From Ceratodon purpureus (Eukaryota > Streptophyta > Bryopsida > Pseudoditrichales > Ditrichaceae): a stretch of DNA of 64,000 nucleotides. The position numbers and the translations under genes are program-made. Each line of letters begins with the position of its first letter. Positions within the stretch are counted from its first letter, which is position 1. Location of the stretch: positions 10,508,583 to 10,572,582 of the forward strand of contig CM026428.1 of the NCBI GenBank assembly GCA_014871385.1, written 5' to 3'. The notes beneath the pieces are model-generated. The model saw nothing but the letters and a program-made list of their open reading frames with translations, ran no database searches and was not told the origin of the DNA. Shown one piece after another: positions 7,594 to 63,008 of this stretch.

Positions 7594-7605
7594 GCTCTGA
7601 TACCA
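7594..7605 (-). other. Primer-binding site (initiator Met tRNA)
   Basis: Minus strand TGGTATCAGAGC, complementary to the 3' end of plant tRNA-iMet and typical of plant copia elements. It touches the 5' LTR with no spacer. Confidence 0.93.
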
Positions 7606-7746
7606 TGTTGTCACAGAGAAAGTGGCTCTGAAGAGAGCTTGAGATTAAGAAGCAAGAGGTTATATACATGGTGTAGCCGGCAACTACATTAGGGTTAGAA
7701 TAGGTTTACTAAATAAAGCTGACCTAATTATCCTAATACTTTAACA
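7606..7746 (-). repeat. Copia 5' LTR (right copy)
   Basis: 141-bp partner of 2471-2611, followed by the right ATGCT target duplication at 7747-7751. As the 5' LTR it should carry the promoter for the genomic transcript, although I see no convincing TATA box in so short a repeat. Confidence 0.96.
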
Positions 7747-14623: not shown

Positions 14624-14648
14624 CGTCAATCAAGGAAAATTTCTAACC

Positions 14649-39996: not shown

Positions 39997-39999
39997 CTT

Positions 40000-41888
40000 C
40001 ACTATAAGAAACCTGTGTTTTTGGAGATGTTTTCCAAAAACATGGTCGTGTTTTTGTCATGTCTTTGTGTCGGTCAATCATGTCTTGAGGATCGTGAGGA
40101 CGTTAACGCGTTTTTTGAGATAAACTGGGCTTATTGTGCCCAGACATGGACATGCTACCCTAAAAACGCGAAGACGTCTGGAAAAACGTCCGCATCTATG
40201 GGGACGTGGCAGAGGACATCCCTTTTAACACAAAATTGCCCGATTGACAAGGGCCTCGTTTTGACGGACGGTAAAATGGGCCCGAACTTACTGGGCTGCG
40301 AGGTAACTTCCTGCCCGAAGTGAAAAAAACCAGAAGAAGGGCAGGGTCAGCCAAGGGAGCAAAAGAGGCCGAGAGGGATTGAAGGACCTTTTTTTATTTT
40401 TTCTTTGTAAATGAAATTTACAATATCAAATTTCTTCTCTATTTTTTTTTCAAAGACGTTCGCATGTCTCGGAAGATGTCGAAAAAGACATCTGTCGAGA
40501 CATGGTGACGTTCATTCATCCATTTTTTGTTCATTGGCGGCAACATTCATCCTTAGATTAGGGCTTTGAGCCTTGGTAGGGTTAGGGTGAGCCGCCACTT
40601 TGGCGGCTTCTAATCTTGTATTTGAGAGCTTTGTTTCAAGCTTTTTGTGTCTCCATGGAGTCTCTCCCGTTTGTTTCCCTATCAGTCCGTCGTTTCTTGT
40701 CCAAGTAGAGTGAGAATTAGCATGGTTGTAGATCTCTTGTAGAGCTTTCCAATGGTAGTAAGCACGTCCAATTCCGAGTTATAGGGAGTGAGATATGGCC
40801 TCCCGAAGTTGGGGTTGTCAAAGGAGTGCGGCTGGAGGAAGGGTGTCGGATTTTTAGCAATCAGTCCTAGGGTTTTGTTTCTATGCTTCTGAAATTTTTA
40901 GGGTAGATGCAAAATTAACTCAGCTTTCCAATAAGCTAAGGCACGCCCCAATCCAAGCTAGGATGGAGGAATGGCAACCTAAAAACTGAAAGGTACTTCA
41001 AAAAACTCTGAGGGGGGTGTATTTTCCCAACTTTATTCTTGCTCTCCATCTTCTTCTTTTCTCCTTTCCTCCCTTGTTCCTTTCTTCATGTGATCTTCTT
41101 TCCTTCACTTCATTGTGATCAAATGCCACCTTCATAGCTGCAGAAACACCTCTGTGGTTGCAAAGACACCTTCATGTCTGCAAAAACACTCGCATGTCTA
41201 CAAAAAACACCCTCATGTCTGCAAAAAACACCCTCATGTCTGCAAAAAACACACTCATGTCTGCATAAACACATTCATCTCAGCAAAAACACCCTTCCAC
41301 ACATCCTGTACACGTTGACATGGCCATGTCAGCCATGTTAAAGTTTACAGCATGGAGATGTTCACTATAACAAATGCCGGACATAGTTCATGTCCGCACA
41401 GACATCGGCGTGGACATCACGTTGTTACCAACAGACGTCTCGAATACCACAGTGATGTCCCCGGTGACGTCTTCAGTAACGCATTTTGAAGTCAATAATC
41501 TCCGAAAACTATGCTTACGTGGCAGGCCACGCTAGACTTTCGCGGCTGACACGTCAGATTTTCCCGCGGCCACGTCAGAAAATGGCGGGTCCACGTTGTC
41601 CGCCACGTCACCATGGCAGCGGTGACATCCTCCGCCCATGTGGCACTGCCCGGAAAATTTCACTGCTGATGTGTCATGACGTGGCGTCCACGTTGCAGAC
41701 TTTGCCGGCCCTCGAAATCACCCGGAGACGCGCGTGCTATGGCGATGTCTACATGTTTTTTCAGATGTCCGCATTTGTTTTCCCTGCGTCTTAGATGTTT
41801 CCATGTCTGCACGACATCCTTTCTAGCGTCCACTTGTTTTTTTCAACATGATTCGGGATGTCTTCAAAAACACGGGTTTCTTATAGTG
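40000..41888. mobile_element. Non-autonomous CACTA (EnSpm) element
   Basis: 1,889 bp starting CACTATAAGAAACCTGTGTT and ending in the reverse complement of CACTATAAGAAACCCGTGTT, flanked by the 3-bp duplication CTT (39997-39999 and 41889-41891). These are the defining marks of the CACTA superfamily. It lies inside the endonuclease region of the LINE. There is no transposase frame; subterminal DNA is rich in ACATG/CATGT words that could be binding motifs. Confidence 0.95.
41137..41300. repeat. About 21-bp tandem repeat inside the CACTA element
   Basis: Roughly seven imperfect units of AAAAAACACCCTCATGTCTGC. They keep a short His/Lys/Cys-rich frame open by chance. Confidence 0.8.
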
Positions 41889-43074: not shown

Positions 43075-43086
43075 CCTGTTTCGATG

Positions 43087-43150
43087 GGACGTAGCTTGTA
43101 CGTGAGCGGAGAGCGTAGAGCGGAGAGCGGTGAGCGCAGATTTGGAGAGC
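43087..43150 (+). repeat. Left terminal inverted repeat of the 18-kb element
   Basis: Starts GGACGTAGCTTGTACGTGAG and carries repeated GAGCGGAGAGC words. 43102-43130 is identical to the reverse complement of 61321-61349. Likely transposase binding sites. Confidence 0.9.
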
Positions 43151-43616
43151 GGAGAGCACAGAGTGGGGGACAGAACCTAAAAATAGCACTTTTTTTACTA
43201 AAAATAAAATATAAAATTAGAAGATTCGAATATTCTCAGTATATTTTTGGAAAAATACTAATTTTAGTAATTTTATTGACCCTATAACCGTGGAATAATT
43301 ACAGTGTTTTCATTGAATTTGTAGTTCGTTTTCTTTTTTTTTTGATGATTAATTTTTTAACGTGCACCAATTACTATGCTCCAGCTCCTTCTAACTAGTT
43401 TAGGCATACATTAATTCCCTTTATCTCCTCAAATTTATATGCAAATTACCGCATAAAATGTATTGGTATTAAAGCTCTTAAGAGGGATAAAGTAACATTT
43501 AATATCGTAACAATTTCTTAACATTGTTAGAAATCATCCGCCATGGTCTACATGGTTTATTTCTTTTATTCTTCATATTAACTTCCATTACTCTATCTAT
43601 CTTTCCTTTCCTTTAA

Positions 43617-43975
43617 TTCTCTTTCATTTTCTTTTCTCTTTCATTTTATTCTCTCTTTCATTTTATTTTTTCTTTCATTTTATTTTCTAGTTCCTTTTAT
43701 TTTCTCTTTCATTTTATTCTCTCTTTCATTTTATTGTCTCATTCATTTTATTTTCTCATTCATTTTATTATCTCATTCATTTTATTTTCCTTTTCATTTT
43801 ATTTTCTCTTTCATTTTATTTTGTCTTTCATTTGATTCTCTCTTTCATTTTATTGTCTCATTCATTTTATTTTCTCATTCATTTTATTTTCTCATTCATT
43901 TTATTTTCTCATTCATTTTATTTTCTCTTTCATTTTATTTTGTCTTTCATTTTATTTTCTCTTTCATTTTCTTAG
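43617..43975. repeat. 17-bp pyrimidine-rich tandem repeat
   Basis: About 20 imperfect units of the type ATTCATTTTATTTTCTC inside the left arm of the 18-kb element, followed by T- and A-rich DNA. No coding sense. Confidence 0.85.
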
Positions 43976-44276
43976 TCGCCTTCATATTATTTTCAATCTT
44001 AATATTTATTTTTGCTTTTTTTCCTTTTTGCTTTTATTATTTTTTTTTTTAATTTTTTTTATTATTTTTTAATTTTAAAAGCTAAATGACTTCTGCTCAA
44101 CCCTCATCCTTTTTCATTCAGTTGAGGAAGATGCAACTTCCAAATGAATGAATATCCGATTTTCAAGGGCGCCAAGCATCTCCTTCACGGATATTTAAGT
44201 TAGGATTATGGAATGTCTCTTCCTCTTTTCTGTTGGTGTTTTGTGAAGCTGTTTTCTGTAGTGCGGGACAGCAGTT

Positions 44277-44729
44277 ATGGAAGACGTCAGAGATATTGTT
44301 GTTTCACTTGCTGACGATGTTTGTCCATTTCAACCATATGTTGAGGTGGAGGACGAAGAAGAGGTGATGGCCAGCAGCCAAGGGCGTCCTTTAACAACGG
44401 ATGTTGACGTGCAACCGGATGTTAGAGCTGACCCTCCACGTTCAGAAAATTCGGATGATATCAGAGTGCTGGAGGAGGACGCAGATGTGCCTTTGCAACC
44501 TCATGCATACTCCAAGGTTGGAAAGATCCCAAGGGGAACCTATTCCAGGGAATCAGTGAATCGGAGGCGGGGAGGTGGGCCATTGCTGAAACGATCATAC
44601 CAAGGACACGCTCCAAGTGTGGGAACGAAAGTGAATGCGAATGTAGTTTGTCCTGTAGTACAGTCAGAGGTTCGCAATCCTGCTGATAGTGTAGTGGGCA
44701 ACCCTAAACGTGTTAGGTTCGAAGATTAG
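44277..44729 (+). CDS. Unknown 150-aa protein of the 18-kb element
   Basis: Intact frame from ATG at 44277. The N-terminal half is acidic (VEVEDEEEVM); the C-terminal half is basic, with NRRRGGGPLLKRS and a final NPKRVRFED that could serve as a nuclear localisation signal. No known domain. It is convergent with the transposase gene, whose end lies 255 bp to the right, and is the first gene inside the left TIR. A small accessory or DNA-binding protein is possible, but nothing shows it. Confidence 0.5.
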   Translation: MEDVRDIVVSLADDVCPFQPYVEVEDEEEVMASSQGRPLTTDVDVQPDVRADPPRSENSDDIRVLEEDADVPLQPHAYSKVGKIPRGTYSRESVNRRRGGGPLLKRSYQGHAPSVGTKVNANVVCPVVQSEVRNPADSVVGNPKRVRFED

Positions 44730-44983
44730 GACATCTAATAACAAGTATATGTTTGCTGTAATAAAGGGTACATGTCAGAGGATACGAGGTATATAGTGCA
44801 CTTCTTTAAGATAGAATGTATTGAAATAGAATGCAATCAATGTGAACGACAAAGCCTTTAATATAATGAAAAAGTCAATACAGCTTCTGAATAGCTGACT
44901 TAGTACATGGTATATTACTAAAATCATTCACTACGTGACAAATGGCCATTGTGGAAATGGCAGTTCTAAAGTAGGAGGGCTAC

Positions 44984-47900
44984 CTACTTCTTCGCCAAGG
45001 GGTGACGCAAGATTCCACTCTCTAGGAGAAGCTTGACCTCGTTGAAGCTAAAGGTAGGCGCATGGATGAAAAGCTCGGCTTCGGGATCACGGTTGCAGAC
45101 CTTCAAGAGTATGTAGTAAAGGTGCTTACAATACGTGAACTGAGTCCTGCCTTTGAACGTAGTCATCGTCTTCTTGAATGCTGGGCAAGTGCAACCAGGG
45201 TAAGAACTGATGGTAATCTGGTAACGTGTGATGTGAGGAGCGACGCCCGAATCCAGCCCAATGATGCAACCGTGGCCCGGCTCAGGTATCATGGTGACGG
45301 AACGGAGGCGCGCTTTGAGAGACTCGGAGGAGCCCATGGATAGTCGCTGCGCCGGATTGGGACGAGTGGCAGTGCGCTTCACCATCTTGCCGTCTCTCTT
45401 GCCTGGGTAGCGGTCAGCGTCTGCAGGGACTGGCACAGAGTTGAGATTCGCAGGGGGCGGGGCAGAGGAGAAGAGGCGTCTTGGGGAGACCGGCTTTTTA
45501 GGCGGAAGTTGAAAGCCTGCTGCTTCGAGGGCAAGAATCTCAGTCAGTTTTAGATTAGTACCTAGTTTCACTGGCCAGACCTCTGGAATGGAGGGGAATT
45601 CCTGGTCCTTTGAGTAGTGCGCTACCCACTTCCGCTTAGAGCCTTTCACGCAGCGCTCAATATCGTCGGAGCAGAAGAAGAACTCTGTCTTCTCAACAGT
45701 GTTCCTGCGATAGTTAGTCCAGAGCCCAGTGTAGGTCGGTGCAGCTGTGCAATGGGGCCCCCTCACGATTCTCTCAGTGCACTTCTTCTTCGTTTCAGCT
45801 CTCTGGGCCCAGCAGCACTTTGCAGAAAGTTTGTGAAGTCTCGAGATGTGCCACTCCTTCACGTCCACCTTGGTTTCTTCAACCGCGTTGACATGGCGAA
45901 TGCCGCTCTTGTTCAGAGGTGAAGGTACAGGGGAATCAGCATTCTGGGTAGGAGGTTGGGTACATTGTACCTCGGTGTCGTGTTCGGAGTCGTCTTCCAC
46001 AATGACTGGCATCTGCATAGGGCGAGCCCTGACGGCACGTCTTGGGCCTCTTGGGCGTGAGAAGTTTGTCTTGTCCGGGCGATGAGACTCCTCGTCAGCT
46101 CCGATGGGGACGTCGGCTTTTCGCTTCTGTGAACCGAAGACTTCCGCTCCAGGCATGATAGGCTGACGGGTGCAGAACTCATCCGCGCCTGGCATATCGA
46201 GCATGGGCTTATCAAGCAGTGTAGGATTTCCCCATTTCTTCGCGTTGCGTTCAGCCATCCGGAGTCTGAGTTCCTTTTTGGACGGTCCTGTTCCGCCGAC
46301 GTCACCTTTGAGGAATTGGTAGTAGTTAACAACTTGAAGAAAAGCCCGAACGAAATCGTCCACGGTAGCAACGTAGAGGTCGTTCCCGTTGTTTCCAGAA
46401 GCCTGGAGCCACTTGTTGTGAACTGTTTCGGCGAGGTTACAGGTGGGCATCTCTGTGAGTTCTTCTTCCGTGAATTTCTGCAATTTTGACAGTAGGTGCC
46501 ATTAGATTCACGGATTAGAGTTTTGTAGGTTAGTGCTAGGAAACCAATATGAAAAACATCAAAACAGAGTTCAGAGATAATACCTCGGTCATGAATCCCC
46601 CCCATTGGCGGAAGCGGTGGTGCCAGAATGACAGCCACTGATCGAGTTTGATGAGCCCGCTTTCGCCAACGACCCCGGTGGATGCCCACCATGCTCGCAA
46701 CGCGTGGTACAGAGTTTCCGCCTCTGCCATGCTGGTCGCATTCTTGTACTGAGTGCACATCTTCTTGTGCTGTTCCCAGAGTTCTTCGGGGAAGTGCTTC
46801 TGCGTATACGCCACCATGTTCTGAGTCCAGTGGAACAAGCACGACCTCTCCCGGTCCTCCATTGGGTCCTCTTTGTTGCCATTGCCGTAAAGGATTCGCA
46901 CTGCATTCCAATTCGCCTGTGCGTTATCCGCCATGAACCCCTTGAAGTTCGGCGCTGCAACGCCATTGATCTCCATGACCAGGTTCAGGTTTTTCCAGAA
47001 GACGAGCTGGGCGTCCGTGTCCTCGGACTGCATGTCGCAAGTGGCGATTGTCATCACGCGGCAGTAGGTGGCGTCGTACACATGGCACGCCATGGTCGAC
47101 CAGTCTTTGACGCGTTTTACATGGTCGAACATGATCCATGCGTTCTCCAAGTCGCCACCAGCTTGCATTCGGCTGACCAAGTCGACACCACTTCCCGGCC
47201 CAACCTCCGACATCTTGAAGAGGAAGACTTTGTCACGCATCGATCCCTGACCAGGAAACCTATTTTCCTGGACATACGCCCAGAGACTGTTACCACGGAG
47301 CTTGGTGATACCGTCCATGATTCCGTACCTTTTGAATCTTTTGAAGGTGGCGACTTTGTTGCGGATGTTCGGCGATGCCATATCTTTGCATCGATCCAGA
47401 ACAGGAACCAGCTCCTCCATCGTCAGCTTCCTCGGTGGTGCATCCTCGGGCTGTAGAAGGTAGCTGCCGATGAGGAGTTTGCTCGCCTCCAGGACAACGG
47501 CGCTCTTTGTTGCTTTGTTGTTCATCTCTACCTGCTCTTCTATTAAGCTACTAATCTCTGCTTTAGAGTCTCTGTAGTCTCCTACTTTCACTGGATGATC
47601 ATGTGTTCCTATGTGAATACAAGCTCTAGTCTGATTCGGTTTGCCCACAACGTAATAAATCTTAGCCTCGCATGTAGCTACACATGATGGAGGTTCTTTA
47701 CATACCTTGCACACTAGCGTGGAGTCAGATGGAGGAGGCTGGTCCATGACAAAAGCTTGCAGGGTACAGCCTTCGAACTCAGTCTCGTTGACCTCGAAGA
47801 TCTTGGGAACACGCTTCAGGAAGTCACAATCCTCGTTCGTGCAACGCAGCCATCCGACGCAGGTGGAACTTCGAAAAGAGAGTCCGAAGTCGTTTTTGAT

Positions 47901-48665
47901 GTTTGTTGTGATGGTCTTGGTCCACAAGTGTCCGTCGTATCGTTTGTCCATTCCCTGCATAGACTTGGCGGCGAGCTTAGAGGAACCTGCAGCAGCTGGG
48001 GGCAACTCAAAAAGAACCGGACCATCAAACTTCGCAGGCAAGTACTCTACTCTCTCGTGTCTAATAGTGGAATAGTCTATCTTCTTCAAAATGTTTTTGG
48101 ACCCACGCGTCTTAGCAATCTCTTTAAGGAGCGGAACAATGCTAACTGTGACCTGGGACAATGGAGGAGAGACATTGGAAGGAGGAGCATCTGCATGGAT
48201 CTTAGGCACCAACTTCACGGGACTGACTTCGTCATCAGAAGAGAGAGAAATGACTGTCGGAGGAGGAGGTTTTTCTACATCTGAAGTCTCAGTACCAGGC
48301 TCGACTTTGACCTTGACATCACGAGGTAAGGGAGTCTGAATTGTGCAAGTAGAAGAGCGACGGGGGGTTAGTATCTCAGTGGATGCAGCCATCAGAGAAT
48401 CAGTAAGACCGTAGACTCTATAGGATCCAGGGAGGAGTCGCCACTGCAACATATTATTCTCATCTCTCATTGAAGGTTGCCCGAGGGTGTGGGTAACCTC
48501 GGCAGTAACGTCATCAAAGATCTCCTCCTCTATACTGATGGAATCCTCACGAAAATGGAATCTGAGACTGAGGCGAAGAGAGGAGACTGTAGCAAGACCA
48601 TCGTCATCTACACGAAACCTAAGAGGGATGCCCATGCCTTGGGCGTACAGGCAGACCATTCCCAT
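44984..48665 (-). CDS. Mutator-like (MULE-type) transposase with SWIM zinc finger
   Basis: Exon 1 48665-46584 and exon 2 46477-44984 join in phase 0 (ACC GAG|GTATTA ... TTGCAG|AAA), giving 1,191 aa from the first ATG. In order: a Ser/Pro-rich N-terminus; a Cys-rich zone (CVGWLRCTNEDC, CKVCKEPPSC, CIHIGTHDHP) resembling the zinc-binding region before MULE cores; an RNase H-like core with VYDATYCRVMTIA, FMADNAQANWNAV and CLFHW as likely catalytic and structural blocks; and near the C-terminus a SWIM finger with CTC...YCKHLYYIL (C-X-C...C-X-H). It would cut and rejoin the element at its TIRs. No stop or frameshift was seen, so it may be functional. A KDZ-type transposase is the alternative to consider. 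Confidence 0.82.
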
Positions 48666-49287
48666 GTTTGCAGACGCAGAGACTAGAAGAGTGTGTGAAC
48701 TAGCGAAGCGATAACGAGAGAGCAAAGTGAGAGGAATGATTCATTGCTGTTGATCATTTTATTCAGGTTGGAATGCCCATGTTAACAGCTGGAGAATGAT
48801 TCATTCTGTTAGGTAACGAATGTACGATTTAAGAGAGACGGCGCTAACTAATTACAATGCCACTTTTTGCAGGTCTAAGTATATGAGGTCAGAATTTTAG
48901 AACTATACTTTATTAATTTGAATCGTGAAGAGGATTCTATTTGTTATGATGTATTATAATAGTAGAATGAGCCGTCTTTTATATTCTACATTTAAGACAA
49001 TGAATAAAAAAAGGAGCATGCATTGAAGTGCTTGATTCAAATCTTTTAATTTTTAGTGTGCTTGGATTTTTTCTTGGTAATTAAAGGATGATATTTTAAA
49101 TTGTACTTTAATTATAGAGTTGTTAATGGTACTCTTAATATAAAGACTGTAGAAAATGTTTAAGTGGTTAATATTTTATATGTATTTAGGGTTGTATTAA
49201 ATTAGTTGTGCGATATAGGTATTTAAGCAGGTAGGAAGTTCTCCAGAGAGCCTTTTTTTTGAGTGAGTCATTCTTTTGGTTAGACAC

Positions 49288-50263
49288 ATGAAGCAGAGTG
49301 GAGGTCCATCTCCCTCTACTTATGTCACTCCTAAACCTAGAAGAAAACCAGGTCGAACAGATTTTACGGATAGAAGAGCGAGGAAGAGGAGAGAGTCACG
49401 TAAGAAGGTATGTTTGAAAGTTGACCATTTGAATGCACCCGTTAAAGGGAGAGGAGCAGGACTGCCTGTAGCTTTGAAGTTCTCTAGCATTCGCAAAGTT
49501 ATTCTAGACTCAATAGAGGAGGAGAAGGAACAGTTCTTTGAGAGCAACGTAATCGGTAATCACGAGCAGGAAATGGAGGTACTTGGAAGTAGAGATGCAC
49601 GTGAGGCCATGACGGAAGAATTAGTCTTTAATTGTAGTCAAAGAGTAGAGTCTCCGCAACCTTCTATTTCATTCAATGAATTTTCGACAGGGGAGCCGGA
49701 TTCTCAATCAGATCTATATGTCGACTCCGAGCAGGTAAGCTTTTCTACACCGACTTGACTGCACTTCATTCGTTCAATTAATTAAGTGTTCTAAAGAGTA
49801 GAAGCAATACTAATTACAAAATGTATATTAATTTTGGGAATGTACCGAATGATCTGCCTTATCTCACGTAAATGCCGCGGAACTAAAATGGTTGAAAATT
49901 TCGTATAAATATTTGTAGAATAACCAGAGGATAAGGGTGTTGGGAAAGTCGAGTAGAGGTTCAGTGGGTGCCGAGCTCGACCATCTGCTGAAAATTGCGA
50001 GGAGGGCGAGGAGTGACATTCTGGGAGCAGGAGACGGAGGCGAGGCTATGGCTGCGAGGGAGGAGGAAGTGAGGGACATGCCGGTACAGGTGGACGGAGA
50101 GGAGGCCGCAAGGCAGGAGGAGGTCGGAGAAGAGATGGCGGCGGAGGAGGTCGGAGAAGAGATGGAGCAGCTCGAGCTTCCTATGGACTCGAATGAGGAG
50201 CAGGAGAGGACAGACGGGGACAACGGGGAGGAAGACCGCGAGGAGGAGGTACGGAGCTTGTGA
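49288..50263 (+). CDS. Unknown basic/acidic protein of the 18-kb element
   Basis: Exon 1 49288-49734 ends GAG CAG|GTAAGC; exon 2 49919-50263 begins after TTTGTAG; phase 0, 263 aa. The N-terminal 50 residues are strongly basic (PKPRRKPGRTD, RRARKRRESRKK), a plausible nuclear or DNA-binding tail. The C-terminal part is highly acidic, mostly Glu with Ala and Gly. No known domain. The layout, basic head and acidic tail, resembles chromatin-associated or viral-type accessory proteins, but that is only an impression. It is divergent from the transposase gene and lies just before the palindrome array. Confidence 0.55.
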
Positions 50264-50815
50264 CAGAACTTTATGTAGATCTTGAGTTATGAGTTGAGGC
50301 TGTACGGATCTTGGGTTACGAGTTGAGGCTGTACGGATCTCGTTGTACGGGTCGTTTGGGTTTGACTTGGAGTCAGTCCATGTTGATAGAATGCGTAATC
50401 AAGTGTTGGGTGATTATGGATTGGGGGTTTGCTTGTCTGGGTTTCTAAGGGTTTGCTTGGATTTCTCATGGCTTGCGAAGTTTAGTTGGTTGGGGGTTGG
50501 AGGTTGAGAGAGTGGGGGAAGAAGTGAGGAGTGAGATGAAGTGAGGAAGAGCTGATCCGCATGCACTGATGAAGAGGCATGTTGGATTAAATTGAGTTTT
50601 CGGTATTCGGGATTGCGTGCGGATTGGATGGGTGTTGGTGTGCTTGCCTGCCCTCATGCATTTCGGCTTCTGTGCAATGGAGAGCTGCTTGCCGCCGCGT
50701 AGAGAGCATGTTTGCTTGCTCTTGGATTTCTTGGAGCTTTTTGTTTGGGATTTAAAAGTGTTCCGGTCGTACTACAGTTGCTCAACATTGGGAATGGACT
50801 TGTGCCGATTCTGTG

Positions 50816-53800
50816 ACGAGTTGTGTGAATGGAATGCTTCGGTATTCACTTAACATGAATTAAATGTGAAGCTGCTTGAGAGCTTTCGGTTTTTTATTTG
50901 TTTTTTTTTTAATTTTCCAAATTTTAAAAACCGGCCCGCCTACTGTCGTGAACGACAGTAGGCCGCGACCTTGGTGTCATGTTTGGGGATTTTGATATTG
51001 CTTCTTTTTTTTTTTTAATTTTGTGAGGAGTTGTGTGAATGGAATGCTTCGGTATTCACTTAACATGAATTAAATGTGAAGCTGCTTGAGAGCTTTGGAG
51101 TTTTTATTTGTTTTTTTTTTAATTTTCCAAATTTTAAAAATCGGCCCGCCTACTGTCGTGCACGACAGTAGGCCGCGACCTTGGTGTCATGTTTGGGGAT
51201 TTTGATATTGCTTCTTTTTTTTTTTTAATTTTGTGACGAGTTGTGTGAATGGAATGCTTCGGTATTCACTTAACATGAATTAAATGTGAAGCTGCTTGAG
51301 AGCTTTCGGATTTTTATTTGTTTTTTTTTTAATTTTCCAAATTTTAAAAATCGGCCCGCCTACTGTCGTGAACGACAGTAGGCCGCGACCTTGGTGTCAT
51401 GTTTGGGGATTTTGATATTGCTTCTTTTTTTTTTTTAATTTTGTGAGGAGTTGTGTGAATGGAATGCTTCGGTATTCACTTAACATGAATTAAATGTGAA
51501 GCTGCTTGAGAGCTTTGGAGTTATTATTTGTTTTTTTTTAATTTTCCAAATTTTAAACACGGGCCCGCCTACTGTCGTGAACGACAGTAGGCCGCGACCT
51601 TGGTGTCATGTTTGGGGATTTTGATATTGCTTCTTTTTTTTTTTTAATTTTGTGAGGAGTTGTGTGAATGGAATGCTTCGGTATTCACTTAACATGAATT
51701 AAATGTGAAGCTGCTTGAGAGCTTTGGAGTTATTATTTGTTTTTTTTTAATTTTCCAAATTTTAAACACGGGCCCGCCTACTGTCGTGAACGACAGTAGG
51801 CCGCGACCTTGGTGTCATGTTTGGGGATTTTGATATTGCTTCTTTTTTTTTTTTAATTTTGTGAGGAGTTGTGTGAATGGAATGCTTCGGTATTCACTTA
51901 ACATGAATTAAATGTGAAGCTGCTTGAGAGCTTTGGAGTTTTTATTTGTTTTTTTTTTAATTTTCCAAATTTTAAACACCGGCCCGCCTACTGTCGTCAA
52001 CGACAGTAGGCCGCGACCTTGGTGTCATGTTTGGGGATTTTGATATTGCTTCTTTTTTTTTTTTAATTTTGTGAGGAGTTGTGTGAATGGAATGCTTCGG
52101 TATTCACTTAACATGAATTAAATGTGAAGCTGCTTGAGAGCTTTGGAGTTATTATTTGTTTTTTTTTAATTTTCCAAATTTTAAACACGGGCCCGCCTAC
52201 TGTCGTGAACGACAGTAGGCCGCGACCTTGGTGTCATGTTTGGGGATTTTGATATTGCTTCTTTTTTTTTTTTAATTTTGTGAGGAGTTGTGTGAATGGA
52301 ATGCTTCGGTATTCACTTAACATGAATTAAATGTGAAGCTGCTTGAGAGCTTTGGAGTTTTTATTTGTTTTTTTTTTAATTTTCCAAATTTTAAACACCG
52401 GCCCGCCTACTGTCGTCAACGACAGTAGGCCGCGACCTTGGTGTCATGTTTGGGGATTTTGATATTGCTTCTTTTTTTTTTTTAATTTTGTGAGGAGTTG
52501 TGTGAATGGAATGCTTCGGTATTCACTTAACATGAATTAAATGTGAAGCTGCTTGAGAGCTTTGGAGTTATTATTTGTTTTTTTTTAATTTTCCAAATTT
52601 TAAACACGGGCCCGCCTACTGTCGTGAACGACAGTAGGCCGCGACCTTGGTGTCATGTTTGGGGATTTTGATATTGCTTCTTTTTTTTTTTTTAATTTTG
52701 TGAGGAGTTGTGTGAATGGAATGCTTCGGTATTCACTTAACATGAATTAAATGTGAAGCTGCTTGAGAGCTTTGGAGTTTTTATTTGTTTTTTTTTTAAT
52801 TTTCCAAATTTTAAACACCGGCCCGCCTACTGTCGTCAACGACAGTAGGCCGGGAGGGTATGGACGGATTTGGGGATTTTATCGATTTATTTTTTATTCT
52901 CTTTATTCTTTGATTTTTGGTGTTATAAGAATTGCATTTTGCTCCCAAAATCTGAATATTCTTTACATTTTATTCAATTTTCAATGGTTTTATTATAATT
53001 TTTAATAGGAATGTCAAGCTTTTGAAGTTTTTTACATATTTGAATGATAATTTCAGTTTTTTAAATTTTTTGAAAAATTCTAGACCTACTGTCGTCAACG
53101 ACAGTAGGCCGAGGGAGGGGCATGGAGTTTGGGGATTTTTGAATTGTTTTTTTTTTAAATTTTTTTGGAGTTCTTTTGTGTAATAAAATAGCATGAAAGC
53201 TTAGAGAAAATTAATAGGAAATAAAAGCTTTTCAAGTTGTATACTTAGTTGAATGTTATTATTTTTTTTTTAAAATATTTTGAAATTCCCCAGACCTACT
53301 GTCGTCAACGACAGTAGGCCGAGGGAGGGGCATGGAGTTTGGGGATTTCTGAAGTGTTTTTGTTTTTAATTTTGTTGGAGTTATTTTGTGTGATAAAATA
53401 GCACGAAAGCTCAGAAAAAATTAAAAGGAAATGGAAGTTGTATACTTATTTAAATGATATTATTTTATTTTTAAATTTTTTTGAAAAACCCCAGACCTAC
53501 TGTCGTCAACGACAGTAGGCCGAGGGAGGGGCATGGACTTTTGGGATTTTTGAAGTGTTTTGTTTTTTAATTTTTTTGGAGTTCTTTTGTGTAATAAAAT
53601 AGCATGAAAGCTTAGAGAAAATTAATAGGAAATTAAAGCTTTTCAATTTGTATACTTCGTTGAATGTTATTATTTTTTTTAAAAATATTTTGAAAAACCC
53701 CAGACCTACTGTCGTCAACGACAGTAGGCCGAGGGAGGGGCATGGAGTTTGGGGATTTCTGATGTGTTTTTGTTTTTAATTTTGTTGGAGTTATTTTGTG

Positions 53801-54790
53801 TGAGAAGCTGCTTGAGAGCTTTCGGATTTTTATTTGTTTTTTTTTTAATTTTCCAAATTTTAAACACGGGCCCGCCTACTGTCGTGAACGACAGTAGGCC
53901 GCGACCTTGGTGTCATGTTTGGGGATTTTGATATTGCTTCTTTTTTTTTTTTAATTTTGTGAGGAGTTGTGTGAATGGAATGCTTCGGTATTCACTTAAC
54001 ATGAATTAAATGTGAAGCTGCTTGAGAGCTTTCGGATTTTTATTTGTTTTTTTTTTAATTTTCCAAATTTTAAACACGGGCCCGCCTACTGTCGTGAACG
54101 ACAGTAGGCCGCGACCTTGGTGTCATGTTTGGGGATTTTGATATTGCTTCTTTTTTTTTTTTAATTTTGTGAGGAGTTGTGTGAATGGAATGCTTCGGTA
54201 TTCACTTAACATGAATTAAATGTGAAGCTGCTTGAGAGCTTTGGAGTTTTTATTTGTTTTTTTTTTAATTTTCCAAATTTTAAACACGGGCCCGCCTACT
54301 GTCGTGAACGACAGTAGGCCGCGACCTTGGTGTCATGTTTGGGGATTTTGATATTGCTTCTTTTTTTTTTTTAATTTTGTGAGGAGTTGTGTGAATGGAA
54401 TGCTTCGGTATTCACTTAACATGAATTAAATGTGAAGCTGCTTGAGAGCTTTCGGATTTTTATTTGTTTTTTTTTTAATTTTCCAAATTTTAAAAATCGG
54501 CCCGCCTACTGTCGTGCACGACAGTAGGCCGCGACCTTGTTGTCATGTTTGGGGATTTTGATATTGCTTCTTTTTTTTTTTTAATTTTGTGAGGAGTTGT
54601 GTGAATGGAATGCTTCGGTATTCACTTAACATGAATTAAATGTGAAGCTGCTTGAGAGCTTTGGAGTTTTTATTTGTTTTTTTTTAATTTTCCAAATTTT
54701 AAACACGGGCCCGCCTACTGTCGTGAACGACAGTAGGCCGCGACCTTGGTGTCATGTTTGGGGATTTTGATATTGCTTCTTTTTTTTGAG
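50816..54790. repeat. Satellite-like array, about 209-bp unit, 19 conserved palindromes
   Basis: Unit about 209-210 bp, carrying GAATGCTTCGGTATTCACTT, T-runs, and a 24-base palindrome with arms CCTACTGTCGT and ACGACAGTAGG. Palindromes start at 50939, 51149, 51359, 51568, 51777, 51987, 52196, 52406, 52615, 52826, 53085, 53295, 53496, 53705, 53875, 54085, 54295, 54505 and 54714. Both arms are identical in all 19; only the central two bases vary (GA, CA or GC). Units 11-14 (53000-53790) have largely different flanks but keep the palindrome. It is not CRISPR: the long part of each unit is itself repeated. Confidence 0.95.
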
Positions 54791-54955
54791 TTCCTTTTTG
54801 TGTAAAGTCAATGCATGGTTGATAAAATAGTTTTAATTGAATGGTAAAAGTCTTGATGAGTGTTGATGAGTTCTTAAGGTTTTTTTGGGAGCTTCTCGAG
54901 GTTGTGGTTTGTTTCATTATAGTTGCTGTTTTTTCTAATAATTAAAAAATTGTTT

Positions 54956-55611
54956 ATGATTAAGGACTCTGATGGAGATCATCTAGGTAGCGAGCGTCAA
55001 GACCCGACTCCAGCAGAAACTGAGGTATTTCATTCAATTTTCAATTTATATTGTTTTCTTATGTGTTTGATTTTGAGTTCTATTCGCCTCAAACACATGT
55101 TCGTTTCCTTCATTTTAAAAAATTGAAGTTAATCCTCACTTCATTTCTGCTACTCTAGGTATCATCCGATGCTCCTGAGATGTCTGCTACTTCCCCCATT
55201 TCTGTGATCAATGTTTCCGATCTTTCGGATTCATTTGATCAGCCTTATTGTACCTGTGATGTAGCCAACCCTGTAGGTGTGGAAAGTGGACCTCTCGAGG
55301 TCCACTCTCCTCAATACATGCCTACCTCGCCAGTGTACATGCCTACCTCTCCAGTGTACATGCCTACATCCCCGGTGTATGAGCCAACCTCCCCGGGCTA
55401 TATGCCCACGTCTCCTGCACAGGGCTCCCCGCCGATGTCTCCACCCTCTCCTTCGTCGCCGATTAGAGTCAGGAGGCCAGCCCATGTGGTCTTTGCTCTG
55501 CCGGCTATTTTGCCGTGCCCTGTCCAACAGACCAGGCGATTTTGGAGGAGGCGCCGTCACTGGAACTGTAGACAGTCTAAGGAGTACTATAGTCGATCCT
55601 CACGTAGATAG
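54956..55611 (+). CDS. Protein with five RNA polymerase II CTD-like heptads
   Basis: Exon 1 54956-55024 (ATG ATT AAG ... ACT GAG|GTATTT) and exon 2 from 55159 (TACTCTAG|GTA) join in phase; the frame stops at 55611, giving 173 aa. Codons at 55315-55419 encode five heptads in a row: YMPTSPV three times, [14 protein letters not shown]. They follow the YSPTSPS pattern of the Rpb1 tail, with Met or Glu in place of Ser2. The C-terminus is Arg-rich. A protein with such repeats could be a target of CTD kinases or recruit CTD-binding factors; this is inference. It lies just upstream of the ParB/methyltransferase exons and could be their N-terminal exons, but I found no phase-matching donor. Confidence 0.6.
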
Positions 55612-55756
55612 TTTTATCAATCACAGATGATGATTGAGTTGTTAAAAGAGAGGTTACAGTATGAAGATATATTGTTACTTTCTTTTACATAATTGTCTAC
55701 TTTGCATGACCTTCTTCGATTGTGCTTGTTTTCCTAATTTGCGCACCTTCTCGCAG

Positions 55757-58700
55757 GTTACGCAAACACAAGATCTGTTGGTGAAACCATCTTGTCCGTT
55801 AAACTTGAAGACTGCCACAGAAGGGGAATTGGAACATCAAACCAAATACAAGGTGAACACCAACGCCGTCATCAACAAGCTCAGGATCAAGCCATCGCAG
55901 AAGTCCCGAATGTCGGTGCCCCTGTGCAGGATGATTCCAATGGCAAAGGTCAGACCAGTGGGCGAAGTGGGTGTGCAGCATTTGGAGCGGGAGTTCGTCA
56001 AGGGGTATAGAGATGGCGACCGCGTCATGTACATCTCCATGTACAACAACGAAGAGCAGACACGAGATGTTACGGATGAGGTCATGGCTAAATGGAGCCC
56101 ATTATGGAGGGACGCGAATGATGCCTTTGAATTTGAGCTTCAAAGTGACGAGGACTGGTCGCATTTCTCGGGGAAGATGTTTTTTGTCTGGGAAGGTAAC
56201 CATCGCCTCTCAGCATGGCTTCGGCATATCAACAAGCATCATGCAGAGGACCCGTCATGGCACATATCAGTGAACTGCATAGTACTCGATCCCCGTGGCC
56301 ATGTTGGCAATCTTCTTCACGCAATGCATGACATCAACTGGTAAGTACTTGTTTCTTTTCTCCTGTTTTTCATTTGTTACTTAATCTCATCTCTTTTATT
56401 CATCATACGTATTTTGGTTTCTTTTCAGGTCGACTGAGAATGACCACGTGAAGAGTAATCTCCCTGCAAAACTATTTCGAATCCGCTCTTTTGGAATGAT
56501 GAAGCTTGAGGAATTCAAAGACCTCCTAAGTCCTGAAGAGTATGACGCATGTTTGAAGAACAAGCCACCTAATCCCTCCTGGTTTCCCTTGACAACTAAA
56601 GTTTTCATCGCATTTCTCTACCGAGTAAGTCCTACCTCCTCTCTCTATTTGCTTTTTATTCTTCAATACTCATGGAATTTCCTAAGCCTGAATTATCTAT
56701 CTACAGCGGGAACTTGCTGCGGCCTCCGATGAAGCAGCAAATGCCTACCGCATGAAGACACCCGTGGAAGAGCAGTCTGCAAGTGCAGTTTGGGACGTCA
56801 TGAATGAGGCATCAGAGAGAATGGTCGAAGCCATCAAGAAGAAGGACTTCACCAAGTACTTGGCCATTGCAAATCCCAAGAATGGTGACGACTTCCTCAA
56901 TGAGGTGACTCACTGATCATTGTTCAATTCACAATTTCGTACGACTTCATTAATTTTTGTATTTATCTTTTTCAAACTTCCTTGCTTCTTGCAGATTAAT
57001 CGCCATTTCAGTCTCAACAATAAGCCTGAGATGTCAGTCGATAAGCTTCAGAAGGTTGTTCCTGCGGCCGTTGAGCCCAAATACAAGGCTCGTTGGTTGA
57101 AGTGGTGGAACTCATCCCCGACTGCTCGAACATCTTACAGATTTCTGCCATCTGAATTCAAAGACACCGAATTCGACCCATGGTTGAACAAAGCTTCATT
57201 CTGGGCTGGGGTAATTTTCATTAAAAATTTCTTTCGATTTCCTTGTTCCTTTATTTTTTTACTGTATTCCTTCTTCGCTGCTACTTATATGAATTCTGTA
57301 TTACAGTTGGAGGAAGCCGTCATCCACGAAGTCGAGGACATATTCAAGTCTGAGAACCTCGATATCAATTGGATGGCATTTCCTGATGTCCAACAGCCGG
57401 GCGATTTTGTGGAAAGTTCACGTATTCTCTTGTGGGAGAAGGCCTTCCCTACGTTCATAGGAAAAAAAGCTGTGAAGCACTTCGACAAGAAGTCCAACTT
57501 CGCTAAATTCCCTGGAACCGCTCAAGTTGTCAAGCGGGTTATTTACCGGTACATTACCAAACTTAATCGCATTTCCATTTCATAGTTCTCATTGTAATTA
57601 TTTCTTATACTTACCTCCTTTGTGTCTTCCCATAGGTACTTCAAGCGAGAGCTTCTTTTGAAGGGGGCCATCAGCGTTCAGCAACTCCCCATGTACTTCA
57701 AGCTTTGGACGCAGACAACCTCGGACCAGTGTATCTATTCTCCCCAGCAGATAAAAAGGTACAAAGCTGCTCACCTAGACGCTGGATGCTGGTATCTTGA
57801 TTGTATTGGTGGTTTCACCATTGACTCCGAGGCGGAAGTCAAGATGCTGCACGATGGAGGTGCAGTTGTCGTGGAGGACTCCGTGGATGATGCAGAACGT
57901 CCTGAAGGAGAGCAGGATCAGTCTTCTGCTCCTCCACCGAAGAGAGGGAGAGGAAGGCGACTAAAATCTCTGGGTTCTCGGTCAGAGGCATCACAGCAAA
58001 CTGGTGCGGAGTCTTCCGCGCCAAGTGAGAAGGCACCAGAGCCCTCTCCGGGTATTGTCGTTACGAACCCTTCTCCAGCTTCTTCACCGGCTCCTTCCTC
58101 GATCAGTGCTTCGGAGATCACCAGAGGTCTCCTTCAGCAGAGGAAGGCCAAACTATATCCTCAAACAACTTCTTCCGCTGGAGCTTCGATTTCCACACAT
58201 GTCTCAGTCTTCAACTCATCTGTGGATTCCATGTTACGGCGAAATAGGAGACAGGAGAGAAAAGGTGGCGACCCGGATTGGATCAAGACTCAAGACTTCA
58301 TTCGCAAGGTTTGTTCCTATATTTTGACATTTCCTGGATTCTGCCACCTTTACTCGCTAAGCAGTTACTAACTCTGCTTTCTTGTTTCCTCAAGTTTGGA
58401 GCAGGCCGCGAAAACATAGTTGGGGACCGTTGCAAACAAGAGGACCATCTGGGAGTCGACTTGATCATTGCCGACATCCCTGAGAATCTTCCCGTCCCAT
58501 CCGTTTCCGTTCCCCCCACGAGTATTCCGCCTTGGAACTCTCGCTACAAGGATTATTTGTACGACATCTTCCATTTTGCAGATGATTTCCTGCAGAAAGA
58601 TGGTGCCATCTGCCTCATCTACAACACTGATCAGAAGCTGGCTGAGGATATCGAGGTAGAAGCTGCTGGTGGTGGATACGTGCTGTTCAAGGACTGGTGG

Positions 58701-59710
58701 GGTGTCAATGTACTCGGCCTGACTTCTCCTACGAACCCCGAGAACTTGGTACTTTTCCTGAACATGCCCTTCTCTTTGCTTACTGATAACCCTTCCGCTT
58801 CATTTTTCTCACTAGTTTTGCTTGACTGCAGACTATGCGGTTCTGGATTCGCGTCTACGTTCGTAGTGGCAGTACTTTCTCCTTCCAGACGAAGAAGGAA
58901 GACCTGATACTTGGGCTCCTCAACATTACCGAGAGTGATGCCATTTTCAACTTCACCGATGCCGACTCTCAGCTCATGAATGGGGAGGTGCCGTGGAGAG
59001 GCCCAAGGGAGAAATCCCCTGAGATGATGCAGAGCATCATTGAGGAGCTGTCGAAGCCCGGCGACATAGTCTTTGACTGGAATGCTGGGACAGGTAACTC
59101 TCTTACATATCTCTGCTTCATTTTTCCTCTCGTTTTTTCCAAAGTTTCTCATTTCTTTGTTTCTCTTCGAGTTTCAGGGGCCTCCATCAAGGCCGCCCAG
59201 GCTGTTGGTCGTCACATTCTCGCTTTTGAGGATGACGAAGCCATATTCAACGCCCTTCTCAAACCATCCGCCATGGGCCCTCCTAAACATCCAAGGCCGG
59301 CAGCAACAGGCGAAGCGCCTCCAAAGAGAGCAAGACCTGACAAGTGGTGTACGTCTTCTATTCTTCGTTCACATTATCCAAGCATTTCTTCTCTTTCCAG
59401 CTCTACGTACAAGATCTAACCACAATCGGTTCTCTATTCCAGAGTAGTTTCTGCATCACCGCCACGTGTGCCAAGAGCAGTGTCCACTCCGTCGTGGCGT
59501 CTTCATTCCAGCCCGATTCAGCCTTTCATACTTCCGGACTACGCAGAGGGCTTAGCACAGGCGTTTCAATCTCGAGCCCTTACATATGTTCCTAGTCGGC
59601 CAACTACTTTTGATCCCAGGGCCCTTCAATTCGTCGATGACGAGGCGGTAGAAGGAGATACGGAGTCATCTAGTTCTGAGAGTGAAAGTAGCGACTGTAG
59701 CATGTTGTGA
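55757..59710 (+). CDS. ParB-like domain fused to a beta-class amino-DNA-methyltransferase
   Basis: Ten phase-consistent exons: 55757-56340, 56429-56624, 56707-56904, 56995-57210, 57307-57548, 57636-58308, 58395-58748, 58832-59093, 59178-59343, 59443-59710; 1,052 aa. The start is open: the frame also reads back without a stop to an ATG at 55661, or upstream exons may exist. Residues 45-194 look ParB-like (VGVQHLEREFVKGYRDGD, then WEGNHRLSAWLRHI, compare the G-x-H/R-R box). The middle has a Ser/Pro-rich stretch with PKRGRGRRLK. The C-terminal third is a methyltransferase in beta order: motif IV-like DLIIADIPEN (about 725-734), motif X KSPEMMQSIIEELSKPGD, motif I DIVFDWNAGTG (about 899-909), then GRHILAFEDD. 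Such ParB-methylase fusions are known in phages and bacteria, so a prokaryotic or phage origin is inferred. It would methylate adenine-N6 or cytosine-N4. Confidence 0.8.
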
Positions 59711-60224
59711 GGTTGAAGGACGCTTCGGTCTATTGTTGTTTTCATTTGATTTGATTTGATTTAATTGGAGTTCATTGGGTAATCCTTCGTCTACTCTACT
59801 TCACTGAACCTAAACTTGTTATAATTCTCATGTCCAATTTGTCTCCGTGTTTGTAAAGGATGAAATGTCACAACTGTAATGCTCAAAATATAATATGAAG
59901 AATGAAATGTTACAAAAGAAAAGCTCAAATGTAATATTGTGCTGTTATTTATATTTTACTCATTCAAAATCCCACATTTGCATAGCCATGTTACCTATTC
60001 TTGACTTGGTGTACATCTTGGTTTCTGCTACTCCATTATTGTACACGAACTCTGAAATTATCCACGACCTTTTAAGACCATTTCTTTTAGTTGGTTTCGA
60101 GTTCTCTTATTTCTAGAATCATCTATATTATCTTAAACCATCATGCTGGAATACTCGTATCTAGATCCAATGAATGACCAAATCTTAAGGATTGTATTCG
60201 AACACCCCACTAGACTTCACTGTA
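59711..60224. other. 3' flank of the methyltransferase gene
   Basis: AT-rich, with possible polyadenylation signals (AATATAATATGAAGAATGAA at about 59886). No gene supported. Confidence 0.35.
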
Positions 60225-60596
60225 CTAATCCTTCGAAGGATATACAGTCCAACTCTTGTCCATATCAAACCAGCAAGTTTCGCCATCCGATATGATCACT
60301 TCGGGCAGCTGAACAACTGGATTCTCATCGACGTTCGATAGCAAGGGATACGGGATTAGGGATAACTCCATAATACGGAGAAGCTCATTGGTACAAAGCA
60401 CTGTCCAACGCCATTCACCTTCACCAACATGGAGGCTTCCGATGTGCCTAAACGGTGGCAGGTCCATGCCTCGTTCCCTGGCGCGCTCCACCTCCAGCAG
60501 CCACGGCCGCAGCTCCTCATAACTCGCCGGTGCCTTTGGGGGCAAACATACAGCCGCTCTCGTCCTCCTGGATCTCGCATTACACACCTTCGGCAT
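60225..60596 (-). CDS. Unknown 123-aa protein near the right end of the 18-kb element
   Basis: ATG at 60596; the frame is open upstream to 60785 without ATG, so an upstream exon may exist. It begins basic (MPKVCNARSRRTRAA), then has a predicted helix (YEELRPWLLEVERARERG) and Trp-rich pieces (GEWRWTVLCTNELLRIMEL, CWFDMDKSWTVYP). No recognised domain. It is convergent with the methyltransferase gene. Coding status rests on the length and non-repetitive composition only. Confidence 0.45.
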   Translation of the reverse strand: MPKVCNARSRRTRAAVCLPPKAPASYEELRPWLLEVERARERGMDLPPFRHIGSLHVGEGEWRWTVLCTNELLRIMELSLIPYPLLSNVDENPVVQLPEVIISDGETCWFDMDKSWTVYPSKD

Positions 60597-61298
60597 CGCG
60601 CAACACACTGAATTCTCGTAGTCTTCAAACGTTACAGGCAAGCTTGCAGATTGACATCCCCGAACTCCTACGCTACCTTCGCAGACAGCACAGCATGCCA
60701 AGGACTGTGTCCATTCTAATACGCCACCTAAGAACAAGCTATAGAAACCAAGAGTGACCTCCTTCTCTGGAACCCAGCTTACCAAGTGCTGTTTGATGAT
60801 GAAAATCTCCTACTTGTATCACTCAAATGAAGATGCTTTGCTGCCTACGAAGAGAGAGTACTCTTCGATGAAGACAAGGACTCTAACAAGGTATATCTTG
60901 GTTTCAGCAGTTAAGATATTATACACAAATTTTGAAATATTCCAGGAAGTTTTCAAACCTTGCCTCCTTCATGTTCTGTGAAAGTTTTTTTTTTCCTTGT
61001 GCATTTACATAACCCTATGAAAGAATTATTTGTTTGATCTGAAACTCAACGCCTGATCATTGTATCTTGCCCAAACTCATGACAAATGTAAAGGACTGTA
61101 TGCATGACGTCATCATGACATCAGCCCTAATTTGTATCTAAGAGAACAAACGTAACAAATTCTTACCAGAGATAACCCTGATTTCCACGGTAATATACTC
61201 TTTTCCTAAAAAAAGTGTCAAAATCAAGCCTTAATTTAGTAATTTTCCACGGTTATAGGGTCTACTTTGCTTTTGAAAATTTTGCTAATTGTCAAATC

Positions 61299-61362
61299 TG
61301 TGCTCTCCATTCTGTGCTCTCCGCTCTCCGCTCTACGCTCTCCGCTCACATACGAACTTTCC
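61299..61362 (-). repeat. Right terminal inverted repeat of the 18-kb element
   Basis: On the minus strand it starts GGAAAGTTCGTATGTGAGCG, with the same GAGCGGAGAGC words as the left end. 61321-61349 is the exact reverse complement of 43102-43130. Confidence 0.9.
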
Positions 61363-61374
61363 CCTGTTTCGATG

Positions 61375-62693
61375 TTCAGGAGTAGGTCTGCTTGCAGTTG
61401 AGACCAGCATTGATCCCGAAGGCTCTCAAAGGACTGGGAGGTATTCACTGGAAGGGAGATTCGAGTACACTAAAGCTCACCTTGTAGGAGCGATAGGTAC
61501 CGTCGTTGGTTAGACTGAGAAACGGTGAAGATCACCGGCCATATCTGTAGACGTTTTTCTCCATCTAAGGGTGTGATGCGGAAGTTCAGAGTGTCCCACA
61601 CTTGCTGTTCCAGCAAGCTAGAAGCTATTTGCCGTTTCTTGCTTGGTGAGGGTAGTGATAAGTCGTTGGGCGGTTTGGTAACCTTCCCTTTCTTGCCCAT
61701 CAGCATCCATCCCTCCGAGTCTGAGTTGGGCGCCTGGGCTGAATCGCTGAGAGTTGAAGAGGTTGTGGTATACTCTGTCATTGTTTCCATAATCTCGGCT
61801 ACTTCTTTCTCGGCCTCTTGTGTAGAGAGAGGGGAAGAAGCTCGGGCCTCAGGAAGGGGAGCTCCGGTCTGTGGTAATTCCTCAGCTCAATTAGAACAGT
61901 TCTTGGATGAATCTGAAGTCTTCACCTCAGCTACCGGTTCGGTGTGGTGATGTTGCGCTCGTTTCTTCTTTTTCTTCTTTTTTGGACAATTCCTAGCGTC
62001 GTGTTCCAGCTCAAGGCAATGGCTGCACTGTCTGGGAATGCCTTCGTATTCCAAATGTATTTCTACTTCCGAGGAAGTCAGCGGCACTGGAAGAAAAATT
62101 GAAGAAGGCAGCATCTTGACGTCCGCCACGAGGACTCAGATCCTCGGTGTGGACGATTTCTTCAGGTATTCTTCTTGTTTGCCTGTCCAGATTACTTCGC
62201 CTATCTCTGCACAAATGGCAGGGAGAGCTCGGTAGTAAACGTCATCTAATTTGGGGAACCGTATCCAAATGGGAATGCTAATTCCAATTGGATCCTGCGG
62301 GTCAAATTGTGCTCTCCATGGTTGCAGGTAGAGCAGATGTGTCCCGAATGTGAGAGGACTCTGCTGAAGGGCTGCTCGCGCTCCGTCTTCATTGGTGAAG
62401 GTCAGAACGAAGTAACCTCTTTGCAACATACGGATCCTCGTAACCACCATGACAGGGTCGACTAGATTAACGTTCACCCATTCTTGGAGCTCTATTCTAG
62501 ATGGATGCTTCGTAGGGGCAAAGCCTATCAAGGCAATGCGGGAGAGGGAGAGAGCGTCCTCATGTATGAGGGCGAGGGTTTCTGTTGACAGCTGAGGTCG
62601 CAGAACAGGGCCGGAAGGGAGAAGCGTGGCCCGAACAGCCTTGGACACTTTGTTCCAAGGCGGGGATCGGACAGGTGCAGTGGTTTCCTCCAT
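61375..62693 (-). pseudogene. LINE ORF1, 5' part (DUF4283-like, zinc knuckle)
   Basis: Starts ATG at 62693. The DUF4283-like RNA-binding region reads RIALIGFAPTKHPS, GYFVLTFTNEDGARAAL, LLYLQPWRAQFDPQ and IPIWIRFPKLDDVYYR, followed by a CCHC knuckle CSHCLELEHDARNC and a Lys run. Stops in the same frame at 62136-62138, 61887-61889 and 61470-61472 break it. The frame reaches the insertion point at 61375 and resumes at 43086. ORF1 proteins bind LINE RNA in the RNP. Confidence 0.9.
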
Positions 62694-63008
62694 TGAGGTA
62701 ACCTCCGATCTCTATTCTATAACTCTGCTACATAACGCTGATGTTCATGGTCCTACATAAACGAAACAAAATTGCAAGAGAGCAAAGGAGATTTTAGGTT
62801 TAAGGTTTGGAAAATCTCGCCCGGTTGCTCGAATCAATCTTGAATCTCCGTCTGAGTTGCGGTGGCGGGTGGGCGATTGCAACGATTCCTCCTGCTCCCC
62901 ATGAATCCTCCGTCACTCCCCAGGCGCCCCAAATGGGCGCCTCTGGGTTTGCAAACTCGTTCGGTCTGCGTCCGCGAAATGCGGAGCGTCCGGCAGTCAG
63001 CTTTCAAG
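62694..63008 (-). promoter_or_regulatory. LINE 5' leader, presumed internal promoter region
   Basis: GC-richer 315 bp between the 5' end of the LINE (CTTGAAAGCTGACTGCCGGA on the minus strand) and the ORF1 start. Full-length L1-type LINEs carry an internal promoter here, and the presence of this leader suggests a full-length insertion. Confidence 0.6.

What the first reader, a model, noticed from the sequence alone, without database searches (positions are those of the whole stretch)
55757..59710. ParB-like plus amino-DNA-methyltransferase fusion carried by a eukaryotic transposon
Seen: ten in-phase exons encode a WEGNHRLSAW ParB-like box and a beta-class methyltransferase with motif X (KSPEMMQSIIEEL..PGD) and motif I (DWNAGTG). 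Known: ParB-N/methylase fusions are typical of phages and bacterial mobile elements. Inference: a prokaryote-derived gene gained introns and became transposon cargo, perhaps to mark its own DNA with 6mA or 4mC.
Basis: partly seen in the sequence, partly recalled or inferred. Interest (0 to 1): 0.95.

Follow-up and report, generated by a model that had tools for sequence, protein, structure and literature searches.

The report
Plant jumping gene with methyltransferase-like cargo
An 18-kilobase plant DNA transposon carries, beside a transposase-like gene, a large spliced gene built from two bacterial-type parts (a ParB-like fold and a DNA-methyltransferase-like domain whose usual catalytic motif is changed) next to 19 copies of one palindrome, which suggests that the transposon makes its own DNA-binding regulator.

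Summary
Ten GT-AG exons at 55757-59710 join in phase into 1052 codons. The C-terminal part matches Pfam N6_N4_Mtase (E 6e-8; motifs X and I only). The N-terminal exon matches no ParB profile, but its AlphaFold model (pLDDT 83) falls on ParB/sulfiredoxin structures. Unnamed relatives (51 for exon 3, 11 for exon 9) show a diverging, spliced family. The gene lies in an ~18.3-kb element, 43087-61363, with inverted ends and an exact 11-bp target duplication, with a 1191-aa transposase-like frame and 19 palindromes without mismatch in their 22 fixed positions. Ordinary 6mA/4mC catalysis is therefore doubtful. Preferred reading: a sequence-specific DNA-binding (pseudo)methyltransferase acting on the element's own palindrome array, working like the VANC anti-silencing proteins of VANDAL transposons (relatedness to VANC not tested). 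Binding, expression and copy number are untested; the source genome could not be searched.

The parts
43076..43086 (.). left target-site duplication CTGTTTCGATG
   Evidence: exact 11-bp direct repeat with 61364-61374
43087..43150 (+). left terminal inverted repeat (GAGAGCG-rich)
   Evidence: core 43098-43150 pairs with 61353-61302, 48 of 53 alignment columns, score 79 against a maximum of 33 in 200 mononucleotide shuffles
44984..46477 (-). transposase-like gene, exon 2, with CxC..CxH SWIM-like end
   Evidence: splice join (inferred); SWIM PF04434 E 0.054, below cut-off
46584..48665 (-). transposase-like gene, exon 1 (from the first Met; DATY, DN..N, C..H motifs read by eye)
   Evidence: ORF, splice join 1191 aa; no Pfam match for the whole protein
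49267..49758 (+). open frame of unknown relation between the transposase-like gene and the array
   Evidence: ORF list and translation only
50808..54787 (+). tandem array, about 210-bp units (a second, about 201-bp type at 53002-53801), holding 19 copies of CCTACTGTCGTNNACGACAGTAGG
54956..55024 (+). candidate first coding exon, in phase with exon 3 (and with 55159-55611)
   Evidence: splice inferred
55159..55611 (+). alternative exon with five Y-x-P-T-S-P-x heptads, ends in a stop
   Evidence: splice inferred
55757..56340 (+). exon 3: ParB/Srx-like domain (most structural matches span model residues about 34-194)
56429..56624 (+). coding exon 4
   Evidence: also read through in relative P0012
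56707..56904 (+). coding exon 5
56995..57210 (+). coding exon 6
57307..57548 (+). coding exon 7
57636..58308 (+). coding exon 8, end of middle region and low-complexity linker
58395..58748 (+). exon 9: MTase half with motif IV region, DLIIADIPEN
58832..59093 (+). exon 10: MTase motifs X and I
59178..59348 (+). coding exon 11, end of the MTase domain
59448..59710 (+). last coding exon, acidic tail and stop
61302..61363 (-). right terminal inverted repeat
61364..61374 (.). right target-site duplication CTGTTTCGATG

Best explanation
This is an intact-looking, about 18.3-kb Mutator-like DNA transposon of a plant. It encodes a transposase-like protein and a second, spliced protein made of an N-terminal ParB/sulfiredoxin-fold domain, a long middle region and a C-terminal beta-class amino-methyltransferase-like domain. 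Motif I (SAM pocket) is kept, but the catalytic motif IV is fixed as DIPE instead of (D/N/S)PP(Y/F/W). Most likely it works as a sequence-specific DNA-binding, NTP- and/or SAM-binding regulator that sits on the element's own 19-palindrome array and alters its chromatin or methylation state, as VANC proteins do for VANDAL elements. Shown: gene structure in the DNA, homology of the MTase part, fold of the ParB part, the altered motif, the element ends and the array. Inferred: host group, transposase identity, splicing in the cell, SAM binding, palindrome binding and anti-silencing.
Confidence: 0.42

Rival explanations
1. Active self-marking enzyme: the protein methylates adenine N6 or cytosine N4 in the element's DNA despite DIPE, with ParB as targeting or NTPase module.
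For: Motif I intact; DIPE strictly conserved rather than decayed; a phage relative uses DIPY, so the second position tolerates Ile; 4mC is reported as a mark in bdelloid rotifers (PMC8885841, title and start of abstract in a listing).
Against: The fourth residue of motif IV, Tyr in all 7 phage relatives examined of 114 matching records, is Glu in 12 of 12.
Confidence: 0.18
2. ParB-domain nickase or nuclease auxiliary: the protein assists excision or replication of the element and the MTase part only anchors it to DNA.
For: The Bacillus cereus ParB-methylase is reported to nick DNA, and a conserved Arg in the superfamily's active-site pocket is described (PMC5512222 passages); the GNHR Arg is kept in 47 of 51 relatives (46 GNHR, 1 DNHR, 4 without the pattern).
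Against: No catalytic test possible; activities in the superfamily vary (recalled: CTPase, kinase, sulfiredoxin).
Confidence: 0.15
3. Captured passenger: a host gene family picked up by chance by one MULE copy (Pack-MULE style), with no role in transposition; the array is an unrelated satellite.
For: Only one copy of the element was seen; the relatives found carry no genomic context.
Against: Multi-exon gene with an uninterrupted joined frame, beside an uninterrupted transposase-like frame and inside the same TIRs; gene capture usually yields fragments (recalled).
Confidence: 0.17
4. The palindrome array is the binding platform or enhancer of the transposase, or a hairpin-RNA source, and the ParB-MTase protein acts elsewhere.
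For: The palindrome folds as a hairpin of -19 kcal/mol as RNA; no assignment of the binder is possible from sequence.
Against: The 11-base half site does not occur outside the array, TIRs included, at up to one mismatch.
Confidence: 0.25

Closest known systems
VANDAL21 / VANC21 anti-silencing system (plant MuDR-class transposons; PMC5735166, PMC10398659)
   Same: plant Mutator-class element, extra protein besides transposase, tandem-repeated short motif in non-coding DNA of the element
   Different: VANC was not compared by sequence here; the VANC21 motif is a 9-mer (YAGTATTAY), not a 24-bp palindrome; here the protein is ParB/Srx plus MTase-like
Fungal DNA transposons encoding TET/JBP dioxygenases (PMC12730594)
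   Same: DNA transposon with a DNA-modification-type enzyme as second protein, TIRs and TSDs
   Different: different host kingdom, enzyme class and transposons; its main text has 0 occurrences of ParB and of Mutator
DNMT-encoding retrotransposons of dinoflagellates and Klebsormidium (PMC5890265)
   Same: transposon-carried DNA methyltransferase, one case in a charophyte alga
   Different: C5-cytosine DNMTs in retrotransposons, shown by the authors to methylate CG de novo; described as host-derived
Bacterial and phage ParB-methylase fusions, e.g. Bacillus cereus Bce_0392 (PMC5512222)
   Same: ParB-superfamily domain joined to an amino-methyltransferase on one chain
   Different: no spliceosomal introns (recalled); the window protein has a region of about 550 residues between the parts, and DIPE
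METTL14 (recalled)
   Same: methyltransferase fold with altered catalytic motif kept for nucleic-acid binding
   Different: MT-A70 family, works with METTL3; no partner is known here

Membership tests
Mutator-like elements (MULEs) | TIRs and 8-11 bp TSD (recalled range) | tested here: met
   11-bp exact TSD, TIR core 48 of 53 columns
Mutator-like elements (MULEs) | MULE DDE transposase domain | tested here: inconclusive
   no Pfam match for the 1191-aa protein or the 134-aa core at E up to 10; SWIM E 0.054 below cut-off for the 81-aa end
ParB/sulfiredoxin superfamily | fold | tested here: met
ParBc PF02195 | profile match | tested here: not met
   0 of 52 members match
ParB/sulfiredoxin superfamily | conserved active-site Arg | tested here: met
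   R150 nearly invariant; HR in 47 of 51 relatives
ParABS partition system | ParA ATPase partner | not tested
   the window was not searched for ParA
beta-class N6/N4 amino-methyltransferases (PF01555) | profile match above cut-off | tested here: met
   33.3 bits against 26.7, model positions 163-217 of 221 only
beta-class N6/N4 amino-methyltransferases (PF01555) | motif IV (D/N/S)PP(Y/F/W) (recalled) | tested here: not met
   DIPE in 12 of 12
VANC proteins | sequence homology to VANC | not tested
   no VANC sequence was compared
VANC-like systems | protein binds the element's repeated motif and lowers its methylation | not testable with these tools
   needs ChIP/DAP-seq and methylomes

The most novel reading that the evidence does not exclude
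A plant DNA transposon has turned a ParB-methylase of the prokaryotic type into a pseudo-methyltransferase that reads a parS/sopC-like array of 19 palindromes inside the element, loading or spreading along its DNA in an NTP-dependent way to shield the element from host silencing: a partition-style clamp used as an epigenetic insulator.
Probability: 0.2. Interest if true: 0.92.

Novelty: new variant of a known kind. Interest (0 to 1): 0.72.

Why it matters
Transposons that carry DNA-modifying enzymes or anti-silencing proteins show how selfish DNA bargains with host epigenetics. A ParB/Srx-methyltransferase cargo in a plant DNA transposon did not appear in the listings I saw from ten paper searches (several lists were cut, e.g. 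12 of 572, and only open-licence PMC papers are held), so it may be new. A catalytic motif that was altered and then kept across a family, and a ready candidate target (19 palindromes), make its role directly testable.

Tried and rejected
Led nowhere: whole-protein homology search, none of 7992 scored candidates at E 0.001 or less; ParB exon in phages, no match, plasmids, one noise hit, IMG/VR, 38 pattern stretches, none confirmed, GTDB contigs, 98 pattern stretches, none confirmed; transposase ORF in IMG/VR, 39 pattern stretches, none confirmed; palindrome in IMG/VR and GTDB contigs, 0 and 0 exact matches; Rfam at gathering scores and tRNA, 0 and 0; profile of 52 ParB members against PDB sequences, 0; exon 9 structure model too poor to use; transposase core against PDB sequences, best E 0.5.

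Considered and rejected: that the exon chain is chance; that the MTase match is to a host MT-A70 or C5 enzyme (the matches are PF01555, CcrM and DpnA); exon 55159-55611 as the direct upstream exon of the ParB gene, since it ends in a stop and its GTAGAT donor is in the wrong phase for 55757 (read from the sequence; other joins were not tested). The 368-aa frame across the joined empty site is weak support only, as 31 codons lie on one side. CpG ratios were not informative. In one search I compared 13 type-A and 3 type-B inter-palindrome segments of 18; the other 2 segments were left out.

Full report
What the sequence is. The window looks like plant DNA: a LOB-domain match (PF03195, E 8e-6; plant-specific, recalled) at 22764-23738, a cupin frame at 14009-14629 and a full copia polyprotein at 3228-7610.

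The gene. An exon 54956-55024 with a start codon joins in phase 0, giving 1075 aa. The same exon also joins in phase to 55159-55611, which ends in a stop and encodes five Y-x-P-T-S-P-x heptads; that looks like alternative splicing but is inferred. Relatives support the gene model independently. Exon 3 finds 51 proteins among 66 candidates (E 1.6e-121 to 5.6e-35, 44-92% identity, none with an informative name). In 44 of 51 the motif at the exon end is followed by W and then the protein's end (33) or Y (11), as a TG|GTA.. donor would give; 2 end after N, 1 has W-L, 4 lack the motif. Relative P0012 reads on through the intron into exon 4.

Methyltransferase part. PF01555 matches at residues 879-933 with 33.3 bits against a cut-off of 26.7, 37.3 bits for the 270-aa piece; phage MTase families match too (best phrog_6952 E 3.4e-10), as do CcrM (E 0.0062) and DpnA (E 0.0083) in the PDB. 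These scores rest on motifs X and I. The motif IV region is in exon 9: DLIIADIPENL aligns with DLIFADPPYNL of CcrM, a stretch that scores only 1.5 bits by itself. In the window and 11 relatives (of 15 candidates) D-I-P-E is invariant. Of 114 phage records that match, I examined 7: motif IV is DPPY in 6 and DIPY in 1; an alignment with six of these seven puts DIPE and DWNAGTG at motifs IV and I. The change that matters is therefore Tyr to Glu. Loss of the aromatic residue that stacks on the target base (recalled) makes ordinary amino-methylation doubtful, but its strict conservation argues for a function rather than decay. A model of exon 9 alone was too poor to use (pLDDT 51.5).

The transposon. 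An 11-bp direct repeat CTGTTTCGATG (43076-43086, 61364-61374) abuts inverted ends whose core agrees in 48 of 53 columns (score 79; best of 200 mononucleotide shuffles 33; the ends are themselves repetitive, so this test is generous). Length 18,277 bp. On the minus strand a two-exon frame of 1191 aa ends in a CxC..CxH SWIM-like motif. Pfam gives no match to the whole protein and SWIM only at E 0.054 for the end piece, below its cut-off, so calling it a Mutator-like transposase rests on the ends, the TSD and motifs read by eye (DATY, DN..N, C..H). Joining the flanks gives a 368-aa frame across the empty site, of which only 31 codons lie on the right flank: weak support.

The array. Between the two genes lie about 4 kb of tandem units, mostly 209-210 bp. 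They hold 19 copies of CCTACTGTCGTNNACGACAGTAGG, all with 0 mismatches; none is expected in 100 shuffles. Two unit types have drifted apart (13 A segments against 3 B segments, 39 pairs: mean 131 matches, 23 mismatches, 59 gap columns), yet the palindrome is identical. Against over-reading this: where they align without gaps the types are still about 85% alike, and other short blocks are invariant too (for instance -17 to -14, +43 to +45 and +47 to +53). The half site is absent elsewhere in the window at up to one mismatch. The array ends about 170 bp before the start codon of the ParB-MTase gene.

How it may work. The parts fit a transposon that makes its own DNA-reading regulator: a repeated palindrome as target and a cargo protein with nucleotide-binding and methyltransferase-like folds. 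The nearest working precedent is VANC21, which binds clustered short motifs in tandem repeats in the non-coding DNA of VANDAL21 and lowers methylation there (PMC5735166, passages; PMC10398659, abstract and outline). [quoted passage not shown] That the ParB-MTase protein binds the palindromes is inference; the transposase or another product could do so.

Verdict. I file the element as a new variant of a known kind, transposons with epigenetic cargo.

Noticed in passing
window 55159-55611 (+): Open frame with five tandem Y-x-P-T-S-P-x heptads, resembling the RNA polymerase II C-terminal repeat (recalled); may share its first exon with the ParB-MTase gene.
   Followed up: partly
window 40000-41888: Short element with CACTATAAG..CTTATAGTG ends (28 nt arms, 93% complementary) and CTT on both sides: looks like a non-autonomous CACTA transposon.
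   Followed up: partly
window 3228-7610 (-): Uninterrupted 1460-aa copia gag-pol frame, so probably a young insertion.
   Followed up: no
window 35866-39998 (-): Two long LINE-like frames; the one at 35866-37959 has a zf-RVT match (E 1e-8), the other was read by eye only.
   Followed up: no
window 49267-50270 (+): Open frames with basic and acidic stretches between the transposase-like gene and the array, perhaps a further gene of the element; no relation known.
   Followed up: partly
window 62136-62711 (-): DUF4283 frame (E 9e-14) about 0.8 kb outside the right end of the element.
   Followed up: no
L001 1881-2696: Phage methyltransferase with motif IV DIPY instead of DPPY, which differs from the DIPE of this family by one residue.
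   Followed up: partly
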